From Streptomyces sp. HUAS CB01 (GTDB taxonomy: Bacteria; Actinomycetota; Actinomycetes; Streptomycetales; Streptomycetaceae): a stretch of 64,000 nt of DNA. Under the pieces are notes generated by a model. That model had not been told where the DNA came from and made no database searches. It saw only the letters and a program-made list of their open reading frames with translations. Each line of letters begins with the position of its first letter. The stretch's first letter is position 1. The DNA lies in NCBI RefSeq assembly GCF_030406905.1, contig NZ_CP129137.1:2049001-2113000 (forward strand), in the 5' to 3' direction. The position numbers and the translations under genes are program-made. Shown piece by piece: positions 24,366 to 33,492 of the stretch.

Positions 24366-24833
24366 TCAGATGCGTACCTGGACCGCGCGGGCGAGCCGGT
24401 CGTGGAGGCCGCGGCCGTCGCGGTCCCAGACGAGTGCCGGGACGGCCAGGCAGAGCAGCACGCTGCGGACGAGGACCCAGCCCACGCCGAGCCGTCCGCC
24501 GTTCTCGCTGACGACCCGCAGCCCGAGGAGCCGCTTGCCGGGAGTGCTGCCGACGGTACCGATCGTCAGCACGCCGAGCACGAAGAACACCAGCAGCGCC
24601 GGATTGCCCGTGGCGGACCAGTCGCGTCCGGTGATGAGGCCGTATGCGATGAGCACGCACAGGCCCCAGTCGATGAAGAGCGCGCCGAAGCGCCGCCCGA
24701 GCGGGGCGACGGATCCCGGCCCCTGTTCCGGCAGCCCGAGCCGTTCGCCCCGGTAGCCGAAGTCGGCGCCCATGTCCTCGGCCGCCGCGCGGGGCCCGGA
24801 CAGCCACGATCCGATTGCTTGCCTGTTGTCCAC
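24366..24833 (-). CDS. RDD-family membrane protein
   Basis: 155 residues. The RDD domain has the family motifs [10 protein letters not shown] (first membrane segment, with Arg and Asp), a second hydrophobic segment [20 protein letters not shown], and [11 protein letters not shown] third hydrophobic segment lies near the C-terminus. Function is unknown; RDD proteins are small integral membrane proteins, some acting in ion or solute transport. The GTG at 24833 gives [10 protein letters not shown]. It is divergent from glnA, as is common in Streptomyces. Confidence 0.88.
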
Positions 24834-25134
24834 CCGACCACGGTACTGGGCACGCTGTCGATCACCGCCTGCCGGGTGCCCCGAAGGCCGTGGCCGCGCG
24901 GGTTTCCCGGCCTCCGGCCACCCCCCGGAAGGGCCCGGAGGAGGGCGGCCGGGAGGCCCGGCGAGGCGTGTCGCCGCACGGCGCTCCGGCCGCCCGGTTA
25001 ACTTCCGCGAAACAAATGAGTCATGCTGGAGAAATCCCGGCTGCCTAGGGTCGTGTCCTGCGTGTGCCACCGCACTGGCCGCACGACCGAGTCACAACCC
25101 CGCCCCTCCCCGGGTCGGGAGTAGGAGGAGTTGG
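24834..25134 (+). other. RDD gene / glnA divergent regulatory region
   Basis: A 301-bp gap containing the GlnR-type site at 24998-25035 and the glnA ribosome binding site GGAGGAG (about 25124-25130). No gene is visible. Confidence 0.5.
24998..25035 (+). promoter_or_regulatory. GlnR-type binding site, four half-sites
   Basis: TTAAC-n6-GAAAC-n6-GTCAT-n6-GAAAT with exact 6-nt spacing (24998, 25009, 25020, 25031). This matches the known GlnR a1-b1-a2-b2 layout (gTnAc-n6-GaAAc). It lies 100 bp before glnA and implies nitrogen control. Confidence 0.85.
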
Positions 25135-26544
25135 ATGTTCCAGAACGCCGACGACGCCAAGAAGTACATCGCGGACAACGACGTGAAGATGATCGACGTC
25201 CGGTTCTGCGACCTTCCCGGCGTGATGCAGCACTTCACGATTCCGGCCACGGCGTTCGACCCGTCCGAGGAGCTCGCCTTCGACGGCTCGTCGATCCGCG
25301 GCTTCCAGGCCATCCACGAGTCGGACATGGCGCTGCGCGCGGACCTCTCCACGGCGCGTCTGGACCCGTTCCGCCGTGACAAGACCCTCAACATCAACTT
25401 CTTCATCCACGACCCGATCACGGGCGAGCAGTACAGCCGCGACCCGCGGAACATCGCCAAGAAGGCCGAGGCCTACCTCGCCTCCACCGGCATCGCGGAC
25501 ACCGCGTACTTCGGCCCCGAGGCCGAGTTCTACGTCTTCGACTCGGTGCGCTTCGCCACCTCGGCGAACGAGGGCTTCTACCACATCGACTCCGAGGCGG
25601 GCGCCTGGAACACCGGCGCCATCGAGGACAACCGCGGCTACAAGGTCCGCTACAAGGGCGGCTACTTCCCGGCCCCGCCGGTCGACCACTTCGCCGACCT
25701 GCGCGCCGAGATCTCCCTCGAGCTGGAGAACGTCGGCCTGCAGGTCGAGCGCCAGCACCACGAGGTCGGCACCGCAGGTCAGGCCGAGATCAACTACAAG
25801 TTCAACACGCTGCTCGCCGCGGCCGACGACCTGATGCTCTTCAAGTACATCGTGAAGAACGTCGCCTGGCGCAACGGCAAGACCGCGACCTTCATGCCCA
25901 AGCCGATCTTCGGTGACAACGGCTCCGGCATGCACGTCCACCAGTCCCTGTGGCAGGGCGGCTCCCCGCTCTTCTACGACGAGCAGGGCTACGCGGGCCT
26001 CTCGGACACCGCCCGCTACTACATCGGCGGCATCCTGAAGCACGCCCCGTCGCTGCTGGCCTTCACCAACCCGACGGTGAACTCGTACCACCGCCTGGTG
26101 CCGGGCTTCGAGGCGCCGGTGAACCTGGTGTACTCGCAGCGCAACCGCTCGGCCGCGATGCGTATCCCGATCACGGGCTCGAACCCGAAGGCCAAGCGCG
26201 TCGAGTTCCGCGCCCCGGACCCGTCGTCCAACCCGTACCTGGCGTTCTCGGCGCTGCTGCTCGCGGGCCTCGACGGCGTCAAGAACAAGATCGAGCCGGC
26301 CGAGCCGATCGACAAGGACCTCTACGAGCTCGCCCCCGAGGAGCACGCGGGCGTCCCGCAGGTCCCGACCTCGCTCCCGGCGGTCCTCGACGCCCTCGAG
26401 GCGGACAACGAGTACCTCCAGGCCGGCGGTGTCTTCACTGCCGACCTGATCGAGACGTGGATCGACTACAAGCGGACGAACGAGATCGCCCCGATCCAGC
26501 TGCGCCCGCACCCGCACGAGTTCGAGCTCTACTTCGACATCTAG
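25135..26544 (+). CDS. glnA: Glutamine synthetase type I
   Basis: 469 residues of the dodecameric GSI. It condenses glutamate and ammonia with ATP. The N-terminal beta-grasp domain has DGSSIRGF. The ATP and metal regions are [20 protein letters not shown] and [10 protein letters not shown]. The adenylylation tyrosine is in [10 protein letters not shown], so post-translational control by an adenylyltransferase is expected. The ATG at 25135 has GGAGGAG upstream. Transcription is probably activated through the four-part GlnR site. Confidence 0.97.
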
Positions 26545-29184: not shown

Positions 29185-31044
29185 TCAGCCGGATGCCTGC
29201 GACCCTCCGGACCGCAGCACAGCGCGGAGTTCCGCGACCGCCTCGCGCAGGCGGTCCGCGAAGGCGTGCATCCGGTCCGCGACCGGCAGGGGCGTGCTGA
29301 GGTAGAGGTTGAAGCGCTCGGGGAGCAGCACGTAGGCCACGCCGATGCAGCGGCTGCTGGTGGAGCCGAAGCCGAAGAACTGGATGTTCCGGGAGGGCGC
29401 GGAACTGGTGCTGAGGTAGTCGTCGCGCATCTTCAGCCAGCCGGGGGTCCGGTACAGCGCGGGCTGTTCGGTGACACCGAGTTCCGGGCCGCGGCGGCGC
29501 TGGATGAGTTCCAGTTCCCACAGGTGCTGTTCGGGCACCTGTCCGGCCTGCGAGGCCTTCGCTCGGGCCACATGGGCCTCGGCGGCGGCCCGGAAGGCGG
29601 CGAGGCGGGCGGCCGGGGACGCGGCGGGGTCCTCCATCGCCCTGACGAACTCCCCCATCTCCGGGGTGACGACGCGCATGGCCTCGGTGCGGCCGTTGCG
29701 GTACTGCCGGGTGGCGATCGACTCGTACGTGGCCCCCAGGAGCCCCTTGGCTCGCTGGTGGGCGAGCTGGTACGCGCACTGGACGAACGCGTCCGGCGAC
29801 ATGCCGAGGGACTTGGCCGTGGTGCTGCCGAAGTCCGGGAACGTCACGGTGGTGGTCGCGGTGGCGTCGCCGTACGCGGCGAAGGACTCGGCGGCGGCGC
29901 GCACCTTCTCCCTGAGCGGCGCGTCCAGCGCGAAGACGACCGGCTCCAGCGCGGGCAGGCCCTGTGAGCGGGCCCCCGAACGGCGGGAGTGCTCCTCGGC
30001 GGTGGCGCTCAGGAGGAAGTCGGTGAAGCCGAGGATGGTGGTCCCGTCGAGTTCGCAGTGCTCGACGTTGATGCCCGCGCGCCCGTCCGCGAAGACGACG
30101 AAGGACACGGCCTTGTCGAACCAGCGGTTCCCGCGGTCGCCGTGGAGCAGTTCGTCGCAGGCCTCCTGGACCCCGGCGGGCGCGAAGTCCTCCAGGCAGA
30201 CGCAGAACAGCGCGGTCTCGACGACGTCCAGCGACTCTGCGTTGCGGGGGTCGGCGAGCAGCAGGTCCTCGCGGGCGGCCGCCCACTCCGCACGGGCCAT
30301 GGTGGTGAGGTGGCCCACCGAGGTGTCCGGTGCGGCGGGTTCGGCACCGGCCTTCATGACCTCGCGCAGTCCGGCCTCCAGGTCCTCCAGGCCGTACGGG
30401 ACGCCGTCCGCGCCGAGCACGTCCAGCCGGAACATGCCGCCGCGGAAGAACACCACGATGTGCCGCGCGCCGGACGGGCCGGGCCAGTCGTCGCTGTACG
30501 GGGCACGGACGGTGTCCTGCCGCGCGCCGGGGATCCGGGTGGTGGAGTAGAGGAACCTGTTCTGCACCATCGACTGGGGCACTCCGCGCTGCACGACGGG
30601 CGGGAGCTGCTCCCGGTCGAGCAGGCCCTTGTGGTGCAGCGCCCCCGCGATCAGCCCGGCGGCGCGCTCGCACTGCCCCTCGTCGCCGTCCCGGAACAGG
30701 AAGAAGAAGTTGGCGTTGAGCGCGATGCGGTCCCGCCGCCCCAGGTAGCGGTACGGCCAGAACGTGTCCAGCCAGCTGTGCACGCCCTCGGTGGCGTCGT
30801 ACTCCTCCAGTGCCGCGTGCAGGGTGCGGCCGGGGCCGCCGGGCCGGAGGAAGGCGGCGGCCTCCGCCTCGGTCGCCGCGAGTTCGTCCGCGGTCAGCAG
30901 CGGTGCGCACCAGGCGAGGAACCTCTCGCAGCTCGCCTCGATCGTGGGCAGCGGTACGCGCGGCAGGCTCTCCTCGTGGGCGAAGGTGGAGGGTGCCGTG
31001 CCGGGCGCCGGGGCCTCCGGCGCGGACGTCTGACGGTTGTTCAC
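29185..31044 (-). CDS. Carnitine/choline O-acyltransferase homologue
   Basis: 619 residues, near the length of animal carnitine acetyltransferase, a family rare in bacteria. Family landmarks are in order: LPRVPLPTIEASCERFLAWC (about 27-46), a SWLDTFW region (90-96), MSPDAFVQCAYQLAHQR (CoA side), and GNRWFDKAVSFVV followed by GINVEHCELDG with catalytic His329. The residues that contact carnitine in animal enzymes have counterparts: Tyr440 in ATYES, Thr453 in NGRTE, and the Ser-Thr-Ser at 545-547. It should transfer acyl groups between CoA and a trimethylammonium alcohol. The GTG at 31044 overlaps the stop of the methyltransferase by one base (TAGTG), so translation is coupled. Confidence 0.85.
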   Translation of the reverse strand: MNNRQTSAPEAPAPGTAPSTFAHEESLPRVPLPTIEASCERFLAWCAPLLTADELAATEAEAAAFLRPGGPGRTLHAALEEYDATEGVHSWLDTFWPYRYLGRRDRIALNANFFFLFRDGDEGQCERAAGLIAGALHHKGLLDREQLPPVVQRGVPQSMVQNRFLYSTTRIPGARQDTVRAPYSDDWPGPSGARHIVVFFRGGMFRLDVLGADGVPYGLEDLEAGLREVMKAGAEPAAPDTSVGHLTTMARAEWAAAREDLLLADPRNAESLDVVETALFCVCLEDFAPAGVQEACDELLHGDRGNRWFDKAVSFVVFADGRAGINVEHCELDGTTILGFTDFLLSATAEEHSRRSGARSQGLPALEPVVFALDAPLREKVRAAAESFAAYGDATATTTVTFPDFGSTTAKSLGMSPDAFVQCAYQLAHQRAKGLLGATYESIATRQYRNGRTEAMRVVTPEMGEFVRAMEDPAASPAARLAAFRAAAEAHVARAKASQAGQVPEQHLWELELIQRRRGPELGVTEQPALYRTPGWLKMRDDYLSTSSAPSRNIQFFGFGSTSSRCIGVAYVLLPERFNLYLSTPLPVADRMHAFADRLREAVAELRAVLRSGGSQASG

Positions 31045-31886
31045 TACTGGTCTCGTTTCGGGTCGTCGGTACCTGGGGTGTCGTACGGCCGGGAAATGTA
31101 GAGCTGTGCGTGGAGCCAGCCTTCCGCCTCGAAGCCCCGCGCATCCACGCCGGCGGCCGCCATGCCGTCGAGGACGAGCGCCTGCTCCTCGGGGGAGGCG
31201 AACCGCCGCTGCCGGAAGACCTCGTCGACGCGGACGGTGCGGTATCCCAGCCCGGCCAGGGCCTGTTCGACCGGGTCGAAGGGGAACATCCGCAGCACGA
31301 AGTGCGCCATCCAGGGCAGGCGCCCGCCCTGGGCCCGGACGACGCGCGTGAGGGTCCGCTCGGTGACGTAGCCGAGGCAGCCCGTCGAGATCACCAGGTC
31401 CGTGCCGGCGAGCTGGGCGCGCTGGCGGGGCGTGGGGTCGTGGTTCTCCAGGTCGGCGTGGACCGCGTCGTCGAGGAAGCCCGATTCGAGGGCGTAGGCG
31501 AGCGCGCTGCCCGCGGCGTCCAGGCCCACGAAGCGGAGGGGCTGCGTCGGGCGGCGGGAGCGGGCCAGTTCCCGGTCGCGGGCCAGCAGGGCCGCGCGGC
31601 TCGCGTCGCCGGCCCGGGCGACGCCGTAGCGCTCGTACAACTCGTCCATGGTGGCGTCGTACTTCACCAGGGCGGCGTTGATGCCGTAGGAGCAGCCGAT
31701 GTCCAGCACCTGCGGCACGGTGACCTGGCGGGACTCGCGGTACTCCTGGATCAGCTTGGCGAACCAGGGTTTGGCCTGCTGGGGAACGCAGTAGCCGAGG
31801 GGCCGGAGCACGGTGAAGTACGTGCGCGGGTCCGGCTGGGTGTAGATGTGGTCCAGGGAGACTTTTCCGGTGGCGTCGAATCGCAC
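31044..31886 (-). CDS. Class I SAM-dependent methyltransferase
   Basis: 280 residues. SAM-binding motif I is VLDIGCSYGINAALV (about 59-73). Motif II is RFVGLDAAG (about 115-123), and a motif IV-like stretch is DLVISTGCLGYV. The GTG at 31886 is preceded at ideal distance by GGAGGAG; the open frame continues upstream through the repeat element but has no family features there. It is translationally coupled to the carnitine-acyltransferase homologue and lies downstream of a PhyH-type oxygenase. N-, O- or C-methylation cannot be told from the motifs; N-methylation of an amino compound would fit the partner. Confidence 0.85.
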   Translation of the reverse strand: MRFDATGKVSLDHIYTQPDPRTYFTVLRPLGYCVPQQAKPWFAKLIQEYRESRQVTVPQVLDIGCSYGINAALVKYDATMDELYERYGVARAGDASRAALLARDRELARSRRPTQPLRFVGLDAAGSALAYALESGFLDDAVHADLENHDPTPRQRAQLAGTDLVISTGCLGYVTERTLTRVVRAQGGRLPWMAHFVLRMFPFDPVEQALAGLGYRTVRVDEVFRQRRFASPEEQALVLDGMAAAGVDARGFEAEGWLHAQLYISRPYDTPGTDDPKRDQ

Positions 31887-32097
31887 GGGGTTCTGCTCCT
31901 CCGTGGGTCGCTGTGTGGGAAACGCCTGCGGGGCGGCGGCGGACACGCGGCCGGGCGCGGTGGCCCGGCGGTGGTGGGAGAGGGACGGGTGTGCCGGCGG
32001 GCCGTGGACGCGCGGGAGCGGTGCGCCGGTGGCCGGCGCGGTGGCCCCGGGGGCTCCGGGCCGTGGCCCGGTTCCGGCCGGTCGCTGGGGCGGTGGC

Positions 32098-32279
32098 CCA
32101 GGGACGTGTGGCGAAAGCAGCTCCGTCCGCCCGCAGGGCGGGGCCTGCGGCGTCCGGTGCGTGCGATCGCGCGGCGGAGCATCATCCTCGTACCGGACGT
32201 ACCTGGATGACTCCGACGACGCAGCGAGCGGGCGTGCCGCGCGTCGCGGGCCGGGAGGGACTCTCGCCACCCGCCCTAG
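32098..32279 (-). repeat. Terminal-inverted-repeat element, copy B (182 bp)
   Basis: Read on the minus strand it starts CTAGGGCGGGTGGCG at 32279 and ends CTTTCGCCACACGTCCCTGG at 32098, matching copy A (7414-7593) along its length. It lies between the PhyH and methyltransferase genes of one operon. Its CTAG end supplies the TAG stop codon of the PhyH gene (32278-32276). As at copy A, the CTAG end points to the upstream gene and the other end to the downstream gene. Confidence 0.75.
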
Positions 32280-33145
32280 TCCAGCAGCCGGTCGCCGCGC
32301 ACGGCCCTGCCCTCGGCCTCCAGGTGCTCGGGAAGTACCCGCCCGAACAGCTGCCGGGTGCGGGCGACGCTCCCGATGACGCCGGGGCGCTCGCTGTAGG
32401 CGAAGATGGCGGAGTGACGGGCGGTCGCACCCCGCACGGGGCTCACCCGGTGCAGTGAGTAGCGGCCCTTGAAGAGCTGCAGATCGCCGGGCCGCAGGGG
32501 CAGATGCCGGACCAGCCGGTCACCGCGGCCGTCGAGGACGTCCCGTACGGCGGTGAAGTTCTCGTCCTGTGCGGACCTGATGTTGGGGCAGTACTCGAAG
32601 ACGCCGCCGTCCTCCGCCTCCCGGGTGAGCATGCTGACGGTGAACTCGTTGGTGTCGAAGTGCCAGGGGTGCTCCATGCCGGGCGAGACCACGTTGAGGA
32701 CCAGTCCGGAGAGCGGGTCGGCCAGTTCGTACAGCCGGGGCAGTCCGAAGCAGCGGGCGACGAGGTCCCGGAACGCGGCGTCGGAGTAGAGCCTGCCGAT
32801 CAGGGAGTCGTCGGGAATGCGGTCCCGGGCGACGAACGCGTTGCCGCGCTGGAAGGTCCTCCGCCCGGGGTGGTCCTCCGGCAGGTCCGCGTCGACGGCG
32901 ATGTTGTAGACGTTCACCGTCTCGAGGTCGTGGTGGGCGCGGGGGGCGAGGGACGAGCCCTCCTCGCGCAGGACGTCCTGGAGGGTGGGGCGGATGAAGT
33001 CGGGCAGTACGGTGCAGCCGAGGTCGGCCAGCTCGCGCCGGGCCCGGGCGATCACCGCCTGCCCCTCGGCGCCGTCGAGTTCCGACAGCGGGTACCGGTT
33101 CGTGTCGACCACCTGGTCAAGCGGCATGGCTTCCAGCGTGCTCAT
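32276..33145 (-). CDS. PhyH-type Fe(II)/2-oxoglutarate-dependent oxygenase
   Basis: 289 residues. The iron triad is His162/Asp164 in HPWHFDTNEF and His232 in YSLHRVSPV. Arg243 is placed to bind the 2-oxoglutarate carboxylate. The flanking pattern (NVVSPGMEHPWH, LRPGDLQLFKGRYSLH) is that of the phytanoyl-CoA-dioxygenase superfamily. It would hydroxylate, or otherwise oxidise, a small substrate. The ATG at 33145 has GAGAGGA upstream, and it is the first gene of the oxygenase-methyltransferase-acyltransferase operon. The stop codon lies in the end of repeat copy B, so the original C-terminus may have been altered. Confidence 0.85.
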   Translation of the reverse strand: MSTLEAMPLDQVVDTNRYPLSELDGAEGQAVIARARRELADLGCTVLPDFIRPTLQDVLREEGSSLAPRAHHDLETVNVYNIAVDADLPEDHPGRRTFQRGNAFVARDRIPDDSLIGRLYSDAAFRDLVARCFGLPRLYELADPLSGLVLNVVSPGMEHPWHFDTNEFTVSMLTREAEDGGVFEYCPNIRSAQDENFTAVRDVLDGRGDRLVRHLPLRPGDLQLFKGRYSLHRVSPVRGATARHSAIFAYSERPGVIGSVARTRQLFGRVLPEHLEAEGRAVRGDRLLD

Positions 33146-33207: not shown

Positions 33208-33492
33208 AACTTCCCACAGCCCCGGCCGCTTGTCTGTGACACGCCACACGAGCGTGGCGGACGTGCGCCGTACCGGGCCGTGCGGCGGACGGGCCGAGCA
33301 CCGCGCGGCCCCCGGGCAGGTGTGCCCGGGGGCCGCCGAAGGTGCGTCCGGCCGTCAGGCGTCGCCCTCCGCTTTCGCGGGTGTCGGTTACGAGCCACTG
33401 ACGACGGGCGGCCTGTGCCGGTCACGCCCGTGCCGGTTTCGCCGGTCCGGTTTCGCCGGTGCCGGTTACGTCGGTGCCGGTGACGCGGGCCC
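33208..33492. other. Remainder of the gap: hairpin and degenerate tandem repeat
   Basis: A 14-bp perfect hairpin (33305-33318 with 33323-33336) is the probable terminator of the minus-strand gene ending at 33493. Between about 33420 and 33486 the motif TGCCGGT(T/G)(T/A)CG recurs four or more times at 15-18 bp spacing. No gene. Confidence 0.5.

What the first reader, a model, noticed from the sequence alone, without database searches (positions are those of the whole stretch)
29185..33145. Operon joining a 2OG oxygenase, a methyltransferase and a carnitine-acyltransferase homologue
Three minus-strand genes form one unit: PhyH-type oxygenase (His162/Asp164/His232/Arg243), class I SAM methyltransferase, and a full-length carnitine acyltransferase homologue. 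The last has catalytic His329 and counterparts of the carnitine-contact residues (Tyr440, Thr453, STS at 545-547). The last two genes overlap as TAGTG. In carnitine chemistry the same three reaction types occur: N-methylation, 2OG-dependent hydroxylation of gamma-butyrobetaine, and O-acylation from CoA. Carnitine acyltransferases are unusual in bacteria. The operon may make and acylate a carnitine-like betaine, either as a metabolite, a lipid or a natural product. The product is inference; the gene identities are not.
Basis: partly seen in the sequence, partly recalled or inferred. Interest (0 to 1): 0.78.

Follow-up and report, generated by a model that had tools for sequence, protein, structure and literature searches.

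The report
Carnitine-like three-enzyme operon of actinomycetes
A three-gene unit, whose oxygenase and acyltransferase occur together almost wherever either was found in Streptomyces and Frankia relatives, probably hydroxylates an amino acid, methylates it and attaches a short acyl group, making a small carnitine-like compound that is probably not carnitine.

Summary
Three minus-strand genes, oxygenase (OX), methyltransferase (MT) and carnitine-acyltransferase homologue (CAT), lie at 33145-29185. The unit recurs: OX lies just upstream of CAT in 79 of 80 fetched loci, with MT between in 67. In Frankiaceae the same 30 of 35 genomes carry CAT and OX. MT and CAT are fused in frame in one Streptomyces and one Frankiaceae lineage. 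No neighbour was shared by three or more genera. A palindrome precedes OX in 44 of 47 Streptomyces-type loci.

Best reading: a free amino acid is hydroxylated, N-methylated, then O-acylated with a short acyl group. The linkage is shown; the product is inferred.

The parts
32276..33145 (-). OX: Fe(II)/2-oxoglutarate oxygenase of the BesD/HalD family with an HxD iron triad (H162, D164, H232; 2OG Arg243); predicted free-amino-acid hydroxylase, 289 aa
31044..31886 (-). MT: class I SAM-dependent methyltransferase, 280 aa (GTG start), substrate unknown
29185..31044 (-). CAT: carnitine/choline acyltransferase homologue, 619 aa; catalytic His329; Gln506 in place of the carnitine-carboxylate Arg; Phe557 at the acyl-pocket gate; Phe559 at the trimethylammonium site
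   Evidence: PF00755 E 4.3e-155; alignments to CrAT, ChAT, COT; residue counts 113 of 113 and 37 of 37
31042..31046 (-). TAGTG stop/start overlap of MT and CAT
   Evidence: sequence; 34 of 67 related junctions overlap by 4 bp (start codons picked mechanically) and two of the 67 loci are in-frame fusions
31887..32275 (-). 389-bp gap between OX and MT; no terminator-like site found in it
33235..33248 (-). Palindrome TGTGGCGTGTCACA (consensus TGTGACGTGTCACA, followed by GACAA) about 100 bp upstream of OX: predicted operator
   Evidence: within 2 mismatches in the 300 bp upstream of OX in 44 of 47 Streptomyces-type loci, 0.02 expected by base shuffling; 1 of 33 in other genera; single exact match to TGTGNCGTGTCACA in the whole genome. 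One such site alone proves little: 1.28 matches with up to 2 mismatches are expected by chance in the window

Best explanation
The operon is a self-contained pathway that makes a short-chain O-acyl ester of a hydroxylated, probably N-methylated amino acid: a carnitine-like (acyl-hydroxy-betaine) metabolite, but not carnitine. OX, a BesD-type hydroxylase, would hydroxylate a free, probably non-cationic amino acid; MT would methylate its nitrogen; CAT would transfer a short acyl group from CoA to the new hydroxyl through His329, holding the methylated nitrogen at Phe559. Shown: gene identities, predicted folds, key residues, conserved linkage, fusion, a conserved upstream palindrome. Inferred: substrate, order of steps, N-methylation, acyl length, product.
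For: Linkage: OX just upstream of CAT in 79 of 80 loci, MT between in 67; in a Pfam-based Streptomyces sample, OX in 30 of 30 loci (the 30 best-scoring of 34) and MT in 23; all 20 OX-bearing Streptomyces genomes found are CAT-bearing; the same 30 of 35 Frankiaceae genomes hold CAT and OX, on the same contig each time, with MT beside CAT in 30 of 30 such loci read; MT-CAT fusions in L044 and in L058, L176, L186; distances of the three proteins correlate at 0.90-0.92. No neighbour is shared by three or more genera, so the start is probably a primary metabolite. Chemistry: OX model closest to BesD, HalA, HalB, HalD and a BesD-homologous hydroxylase, with the Asp ligand kept. CAT keeps His329, the STS motif, Thr453, Tyr440, Phe559 and the CoA-site K411/D418; Phe557 replaces the pocket-limiting Met564, which suggests short acyl groups. 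Gln506 instead of Arg518 argues for an acceptor without a carboxylate in the carnitine position.
Against: No metabolite or activity is known. The MT fold ties with C-, O- and N-methyltransferases, so N-methylation is a guess from CAT's family. MT is missing from 12 of 79 operons; 11 of these 12 genomes have a ~40% identical MT elsewhere against 7 of 52 MT-bearing ones, but only 3-5 independent tree pairs exist, MT relatives are common anyway (a match in 89 of 295 Streptomyces genomes, 55 of them without CAT), and the paralogues read lack the palindrome. Methylation may therefore be dispensable. The counterpart of one CoA-site lysine (Lys419) is not kept. OX is only 18% identical to HalB, so residue-by-residue claims about its pocket are weak. 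Roles of the CAT residues are recalled from carnitine acetyltransferase work, not tested here.
Confidence: 0.5

Rival explanations
1. True carnitine pathway: an amine such as GABA is trimethylated to gamma-butyrobetaine, hydroxylated to carnitine and acylated to acylcarnitine.
For: Same three reaction types; CAT keeps the His, Thr, Tyr, STS and Phe of carnitine acetyltransferase.
Against: The carboxylate-binding Arg518 is Gln in 113 of 113 and 37 of 37 copies, while divergent bacterial relatives L140 and L142 keep Arg. OX falls in the BesD family; no TauD/BBOX-type family reached E 1.
Confidence: 0.08
2. Hydroxy-amino-acid ester: MT methylates oxygen or carbon, for example the carboxylate, so that CAT acylates a neutral hydroxylated amino-acid ester and no betaine is made.
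For: MT fold ties with O- and C-methyltransferases; a neutral carboxyl end would fit Gln506; 12 operons have no adjacent MT.
Against: Phe559, the counterpart of the trimethylammonium-site Phe566, is invariant.
Confidence: 0.22
3. Oxidative demethylation: OX oxidises an N-methyl group and releases formaldehyde or an N-hydroxymethyl product, so the operon degrades or remodels a methylated amine.
For: Two distant OX relatives (34% identity) sit directly beside a formaldehyde-activating enzyme gene (L164, L172).
Against: In the other seven relatives no such gene was seen beside OX, though neighbours of two (L166, L168) were not profile-tested; three have a hydroxyacid or short-chain dehydrogenase gene next to OX (L167, L169, L171). 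Nothing else is conserved beside the operon across three genera.
Confidence: 0.07
4. CAT as an acyltransferase for a carrier-bound or polyketide-like product, like the carnitine-acyltransferase domains of some fungal polyketide synthases (recalled); OX and MT tailor the same product.
For: One divergent Streptomyces CAT (G476/L140) lies in a cluster with a 1289-aa NRPS-like protein and methyltransferase-like proteins (names read by eye from sequence starts, not profile-tested).
Against: No neighbour is shared by three or more genera beside the operon; L140 is about 30% identical to CAT and lacks Thr453 and Phe559.
Confidence: 0.06

Closest known systems
BesD / HalA / HalB / HalD and the BesD-homologous lysine hydroxylase (PDB 7jsd, 9oet)
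   Different: 15-19% identity in these structural alignments; HxD ligand set of a hydroxylase, not HxG; no counterpart of the acidic residues beside the motif of HalB in the alignment (18% identity, role of those residues recalled); tied to CAT
Carnitine O-acetyltransferase, carnitine octanoyltransferase, choline O-acetyltransferase (PF00755)
   Same: Homology over nearly the full length to CrAT and ChAT (E 4e-63 to 6e-62), catalytic His, STS motif, CoA-site Lys423/Asp430 counterparts
   Different: Arg518 is Gln506 (choline acetyltransferase has Asn), Met564 is Phe557, the GPVVPDG loop is GSTSSRC; bacterial and operon-encoded
Eukaryotic carnitine biosynthesis (gamma-butyrobetaine and trimethyllysine dioxygenases; recalled) followed by acyl transfer
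   Same: The logic: methylation, 2OG hydroxylation, O-acylation
   Different: Unrelated oxygenase family; a free-standing SAM methyltransferase in place of protein lysine methylation (inference); no further enzyme conserved nearby
Small-molecule class I methyltransferases (TylM1, CalS10, PsmD and SeMT C-methyltransferases, bacterial phosphatidylethanolamine N-methyltransferase)
   Different: 14-18% identity; no family model matches; substrate unknown

Membership tests
BesD/HalD family (PF23169) | Profile match over curated cut-off | tested here: met
   49.8 bits against cut-off 26; 24 of 24 members of A1 match at E 0.01
BesD/HalD family (PF23169) | Fold closest to solved BesD-family enzymes | tested here: met
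BesD-type halogenases | HxG in place of the HxD iron-binding carboxylate | tested here: not met
   H162-F-D164; Asp in 110 of 110 copies; the same genome's HalB-like protein has HWG
   No PhyH family up to E 1
Choline/carnitine acyltransferase family (PF00755) | Full-length profile match | tested here: met
   518 bits, positions 1-573 of 574
Choline/carnitine acyltransferase family (PF00755) | Catalytic His with following acidic residue, STS motif, CoA-site Lys423/Asp430 | tested here: met
   H329, D333, S545/S547, K411, D418 in 113 of 113; one Asn at 545 among 37 more
Carnitine-specific acyltransferases | Arg518 that binds the carnitine carboxylate (role recalled) | tested here: not met
   Gln506 in 113 of 113 and 37 of 37; position fixed by the alignment
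Carnitine-specific acyltransferases | Activity with carnitine | not testable with these tools
   needs purified enzyme
Choline-specific acyltransferases | Val and Asn in place of Thr465 and Arg518 (letters seen in ChAT; role recalled) | tested here: not met
   Thr453 and Gln506
Class I SAM methyltransferases | Rossmann-like methyltransferase fold with glycine-rich motif I | tested here: met
   VLDIGCSYG at 60-68
Class I SAM methyltransferases | Match to a Pfam or NCBIfam methyltransferase model over cut-off | tested here: not met
   best 15 bits against 30; none for the window's protein in NCBIfam
Eukaryote-type carnitine biosynthesis | Gamma-butyrobetaine/trimethyllysine dioxygenase (TauD-like) family oxygenase | tested here: not met
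   only PF23169 and PF22814 reach E 1

The most novel reading that the evidence does not exclude
A class of small bacterial acyl-hydroxy-betaines, functional counterparts of acylcarnitine or acetylcholine, made by a three-enzyme route unrelated to the eukaryotic one. It is near-universal in Frankiaceae and patchy in Streptomyces, Actinomadura, Nocardia and other genera, and is controlled by one dedicated operator in Streptomyces.
Probability: 0.25. Interest if true: 0.85.

Novelty: new variant of a known kind. Interest (0 to 1): 0.62.

Why it matters
Carnitine acyltransferases are textbook mitochondrial enzymes; here a bacterial branch with an invariantly altered acceptor site is tied to an amino-acid hydroxylase. 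Because the unit is only three genes and no synthase gene is conserved with it, its product should be reachable by expressing three genes and reading a mass shift. It is present in 30 of 35 genomes of the Frankiaceae, the family of nitrogen-fixing root-nodule symbionts (recalled), so the product may matter for that family. The oxygenases are also labelled 'HalD/BesD family halogenase' in public records, although all 110 copies read have the hydroxylase-type Asp ligand.

Tried and rejected
Larger gene cluster: flank ORFs of the 80 loci were clustered and those of nine loci printed; every ORF with relatives in three or more genus groups overlaps OX, MT or CAT. A few flank ORFs did have relatives in a second genus (L043:12505-13710, L043:16317-18166, L058:15356-16297), of which the last looks like a generic ABC ATPase by eye. 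Within Streptomyces many loci share the window's own chromosomal flanks (up to 22 of 80 for ORF 24772-26544). Ten fetched Frankiaceae regions (nine genomes) plus L058 show no neighbour shared between genera but one 27-28% pair; the ORF caller used there missed some true MT genes, so it can miss genes. Mobile origin: no CAT match in 72,556 plasmid or 50,697 phage records. OX as halogenase: rejected on the Asp ligand. Replacement of MT by its paralogue: strong raw association (11 of 12 against 7 of 52, Fisher 4.5e-7; genomes of 63 of the 80 loci plus the window, L078 searched but dropped because its contig is cut and no MT was found) but only 3-5 independent pairs, not significant on the tree; no common neighbourhood of the paralogues outside one Streptomyces group was seen and none of 14 had the palindrome. 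Regulator of the palindrome: it resembles a CRP-type site (a recalled Streptomyces Crp motif matched 37 of 80 upstream regions against 1.4 by shuffling), but the one paper opened gave no motif, so it is left open; the 14-base core was chosen from these same upstream regions. Literature: ten searches showed no paper on this operon, judged by listed titles and abstract starts only; several lists were capped (20 of 3,281 papers, 10 of 2,214, 5 of 108, 10 of 21), and most subscription journals are not held. OX and CAT match no NCBIfam model up to E 1.

Caveats: the 80 loci are the best 80 of 268 and were found with peptides of the window's own CAT, so close relatives are over-represented; searches are less biased. 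All genome tallies include the window's own genome where it was in the sample. Samples overlap: some genomes appear (for example L019 and L112), and at least five loci of the 37 repeat loci of the 113, so copies are not all independent. One search saw only about 1.5 kb on each side. Whether all 34 CAT-bearing genomes were in the 199-genome sample is not shown; 20 of them were hit there. That family f90 is Frankiaceae is inferred from a CAT 100% identical over 608 residues to that of 'Candidatus Frankia californiensis' (L185 and L058). Start codons were picked mechanically. My note says 31 f90 loci with MT; the recount gives 30 of 30, and a 31st copy (L216) keeps only an MT remnant.
Full report
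WHAT IS THERE. Three genes lie on the minus strand: OX, 33145-32276; MT, 31886-31044; CAT, 31044-29185. The MT stop and CAT start share a base. OX and MT are 389 bp apart, with no terminator-like site found in the gap; in 67 relatives the gap is 4-401 bp.

LINKAGE. A search of genome contigs with CAT gave 268 relatives, of which the best 80 loci were kept. OX lies just upstream in 79 of 80; in the last, L078, the contig starts 50 bp before the match. MT lies between in 67, and 12 loci have OX-CAT only. To avoid choosing by similarity, I searched genomes with the Pfam family. PF00755 occurs in 5 of 396 Actinomycetota genomes and 34 of 295 Streptomyces genomes, own genome included. Of the 30 best-scoring Streptomyces loci fetched, 30 have OX and 23 have MT; of the five Actinomycetota hits, three (one the window's own) carry OX and MT and two (one divergent, one weak fragment) show neither within the stretch held. 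OX itself was found in 20 of 199 Streptomyces genomes, every one CAT-bearing. In the class sample CAT or a divergent relative was found in 31 of 296 genomes and 8 of 114 genera; 22 of the 31 are in family f90 and two are divergent partial matches. Family f90 is identified as Frankiaceae through a CAT 100% identical to that of Candidatus Frankia californiensis: 30 of 35 genomes have CAT, the same 30 have OX on the same contig, and the same five lack both. MT is beside CAT in 30 of 30 f90 loci read. One genome, G758, has two CAT copies: OX, an MT remnant and CAT in one place (L216), MT and CAT without OX in the other (L217). MT and CAT overlap by 4 bp in 34 of 67 loci. They form one open frame in S. 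specialis (L044, 902 codons), in Ca. Frankia californiensis (L058, 904 codons; L185 is the same) and in two more f90 genomes of the same genus code (L176, L186). The pairwise distances of OX, MT and CAT correlate at 0.90-0.92 over 68 rows; a Mantel test of OX against CAT over 80 rows gave 0.89, reached in 0 of 1000 permutations. This shows shared descent as a unit and is not by itself proof of function.

BOUNDARIES AND CONTROL. Among the flank ORFs printed for nine loci, none outside OX-MT-CAT has relatives in three or more genera; a few have relatives in two. The window's own flanks are shared by up to 22 of the 80 loci. In Frankiaceae no neighbour is shared between genera apart from one 27-28% pair. 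A palindrome, TGTGACGTGTCACA, stands within 300 bp upstream of OX in 44 of 47 Streptomyces-type loci within two mismatches (0.02 expected by base shuffling) but in only 1 of 33 other loci. The core was chosen from these regions, so the expectation is somewhat too low; the conservation is not in doubt. In the window it is at 33235-33248, and TGTGNCGTGTCACA occurs once in the whole genome. It is best read as a dedicated operator of the Streptomyces operons. It resembles a CRP-type site, but I could not test that.

THE ACYLTRANSFERASE. Alignment to carnitine O-acetyltransferase (1nm8) fixes positions: adding 21 to the chain index reproduces the recalled residues H343, D430, Y452, T465, R518, S552, S554, M564 and F566 (my count). 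The counterparts are H329, D418, Y440, T453, Gln506, S545, S547, Phe557 and Phe559. All are invariant in 113 copies and, but for one Asn at 545, in 37 more, at least five of which repeat the first set. In CrAT the arginine holds the carnitine carboxylate (recalled); choline acetyltransferase has Asn there. The divergent relatives L140 and L142 keep Arg. Phe557, at the position of the residue that limits the acyl pocket in CrAT (recalled), suggests short acyl groups. So this is a clade with catalysis and the trimethylammonium-site Phe kept but the acceptor site changed.

MECHANISM. The simplest pathway is: free amino acid, hydroxylated by OX; nitrogen methylated by MT; new hydroxyl acylated by CAT from a short acyl-CoA. 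The first and last steps rest on family, fold and residues; N-methylation rests on CAT's family and Phe559 and is the weakest step. A beta-hydroxy alpha-betaine would fit: its hydroxyl and quaternary nitrogen are spaced as in choline and carnitine, while the group facing Gln506 would be a side chain and not a carboxylate. That geometry is a proposal, not a result.

VERDICT. The enzymes belong to known families; the combination and the altered CAT clade appeared in no title or abstract start listed by ten searches of an open-access library.

Noticed in passing
L151 / G000:C1:4355170-4355847 (the window's own genome): A second PF23169 protein, 341 bits, nearly identical by eye to crystallised HalB (PDB 7u6i), with the halogenase motif HWG. 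The strain thus has both an HxG relative and the operon's HxD relative.
   Followed up: partly
L164:5541-6956 and L172:2277-3604: Distant OX relatives lie directly beside a formaldehyde-activating enzyme (Fae) gene, which suggests that some PF23169 members are oxidative demethylases.
   Followed up: partly
L140-L141 (G476): A divergent Streptomyces CAT sits in a cluster with a 1289-aa NRPS-like protein, an aminotransferase-like protein and methyltransferase-like proteins, one of them (G476:C1:569584) a relative of the operon's MT (other names by eye).
   Followed up: partly
L041:9083-9897 (S. clavifer): The operon's MT reads in two pieces in different frames, while OX and CAT read through.
   Followed up: no
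G758 (L216, L217; Frankiaceae): Two CAT copies: one with OX and only an MT remnant (matching MT residues 216-270) between, one with MT but no OX.
   Followed up: partly
window 31887-32275: The OX-MT gap is unusually long; its first half shows no match in the near relative L001, and a 56-bp piece matches the OX-MT gap of L018 in inverted orientation.
   Followed up: no
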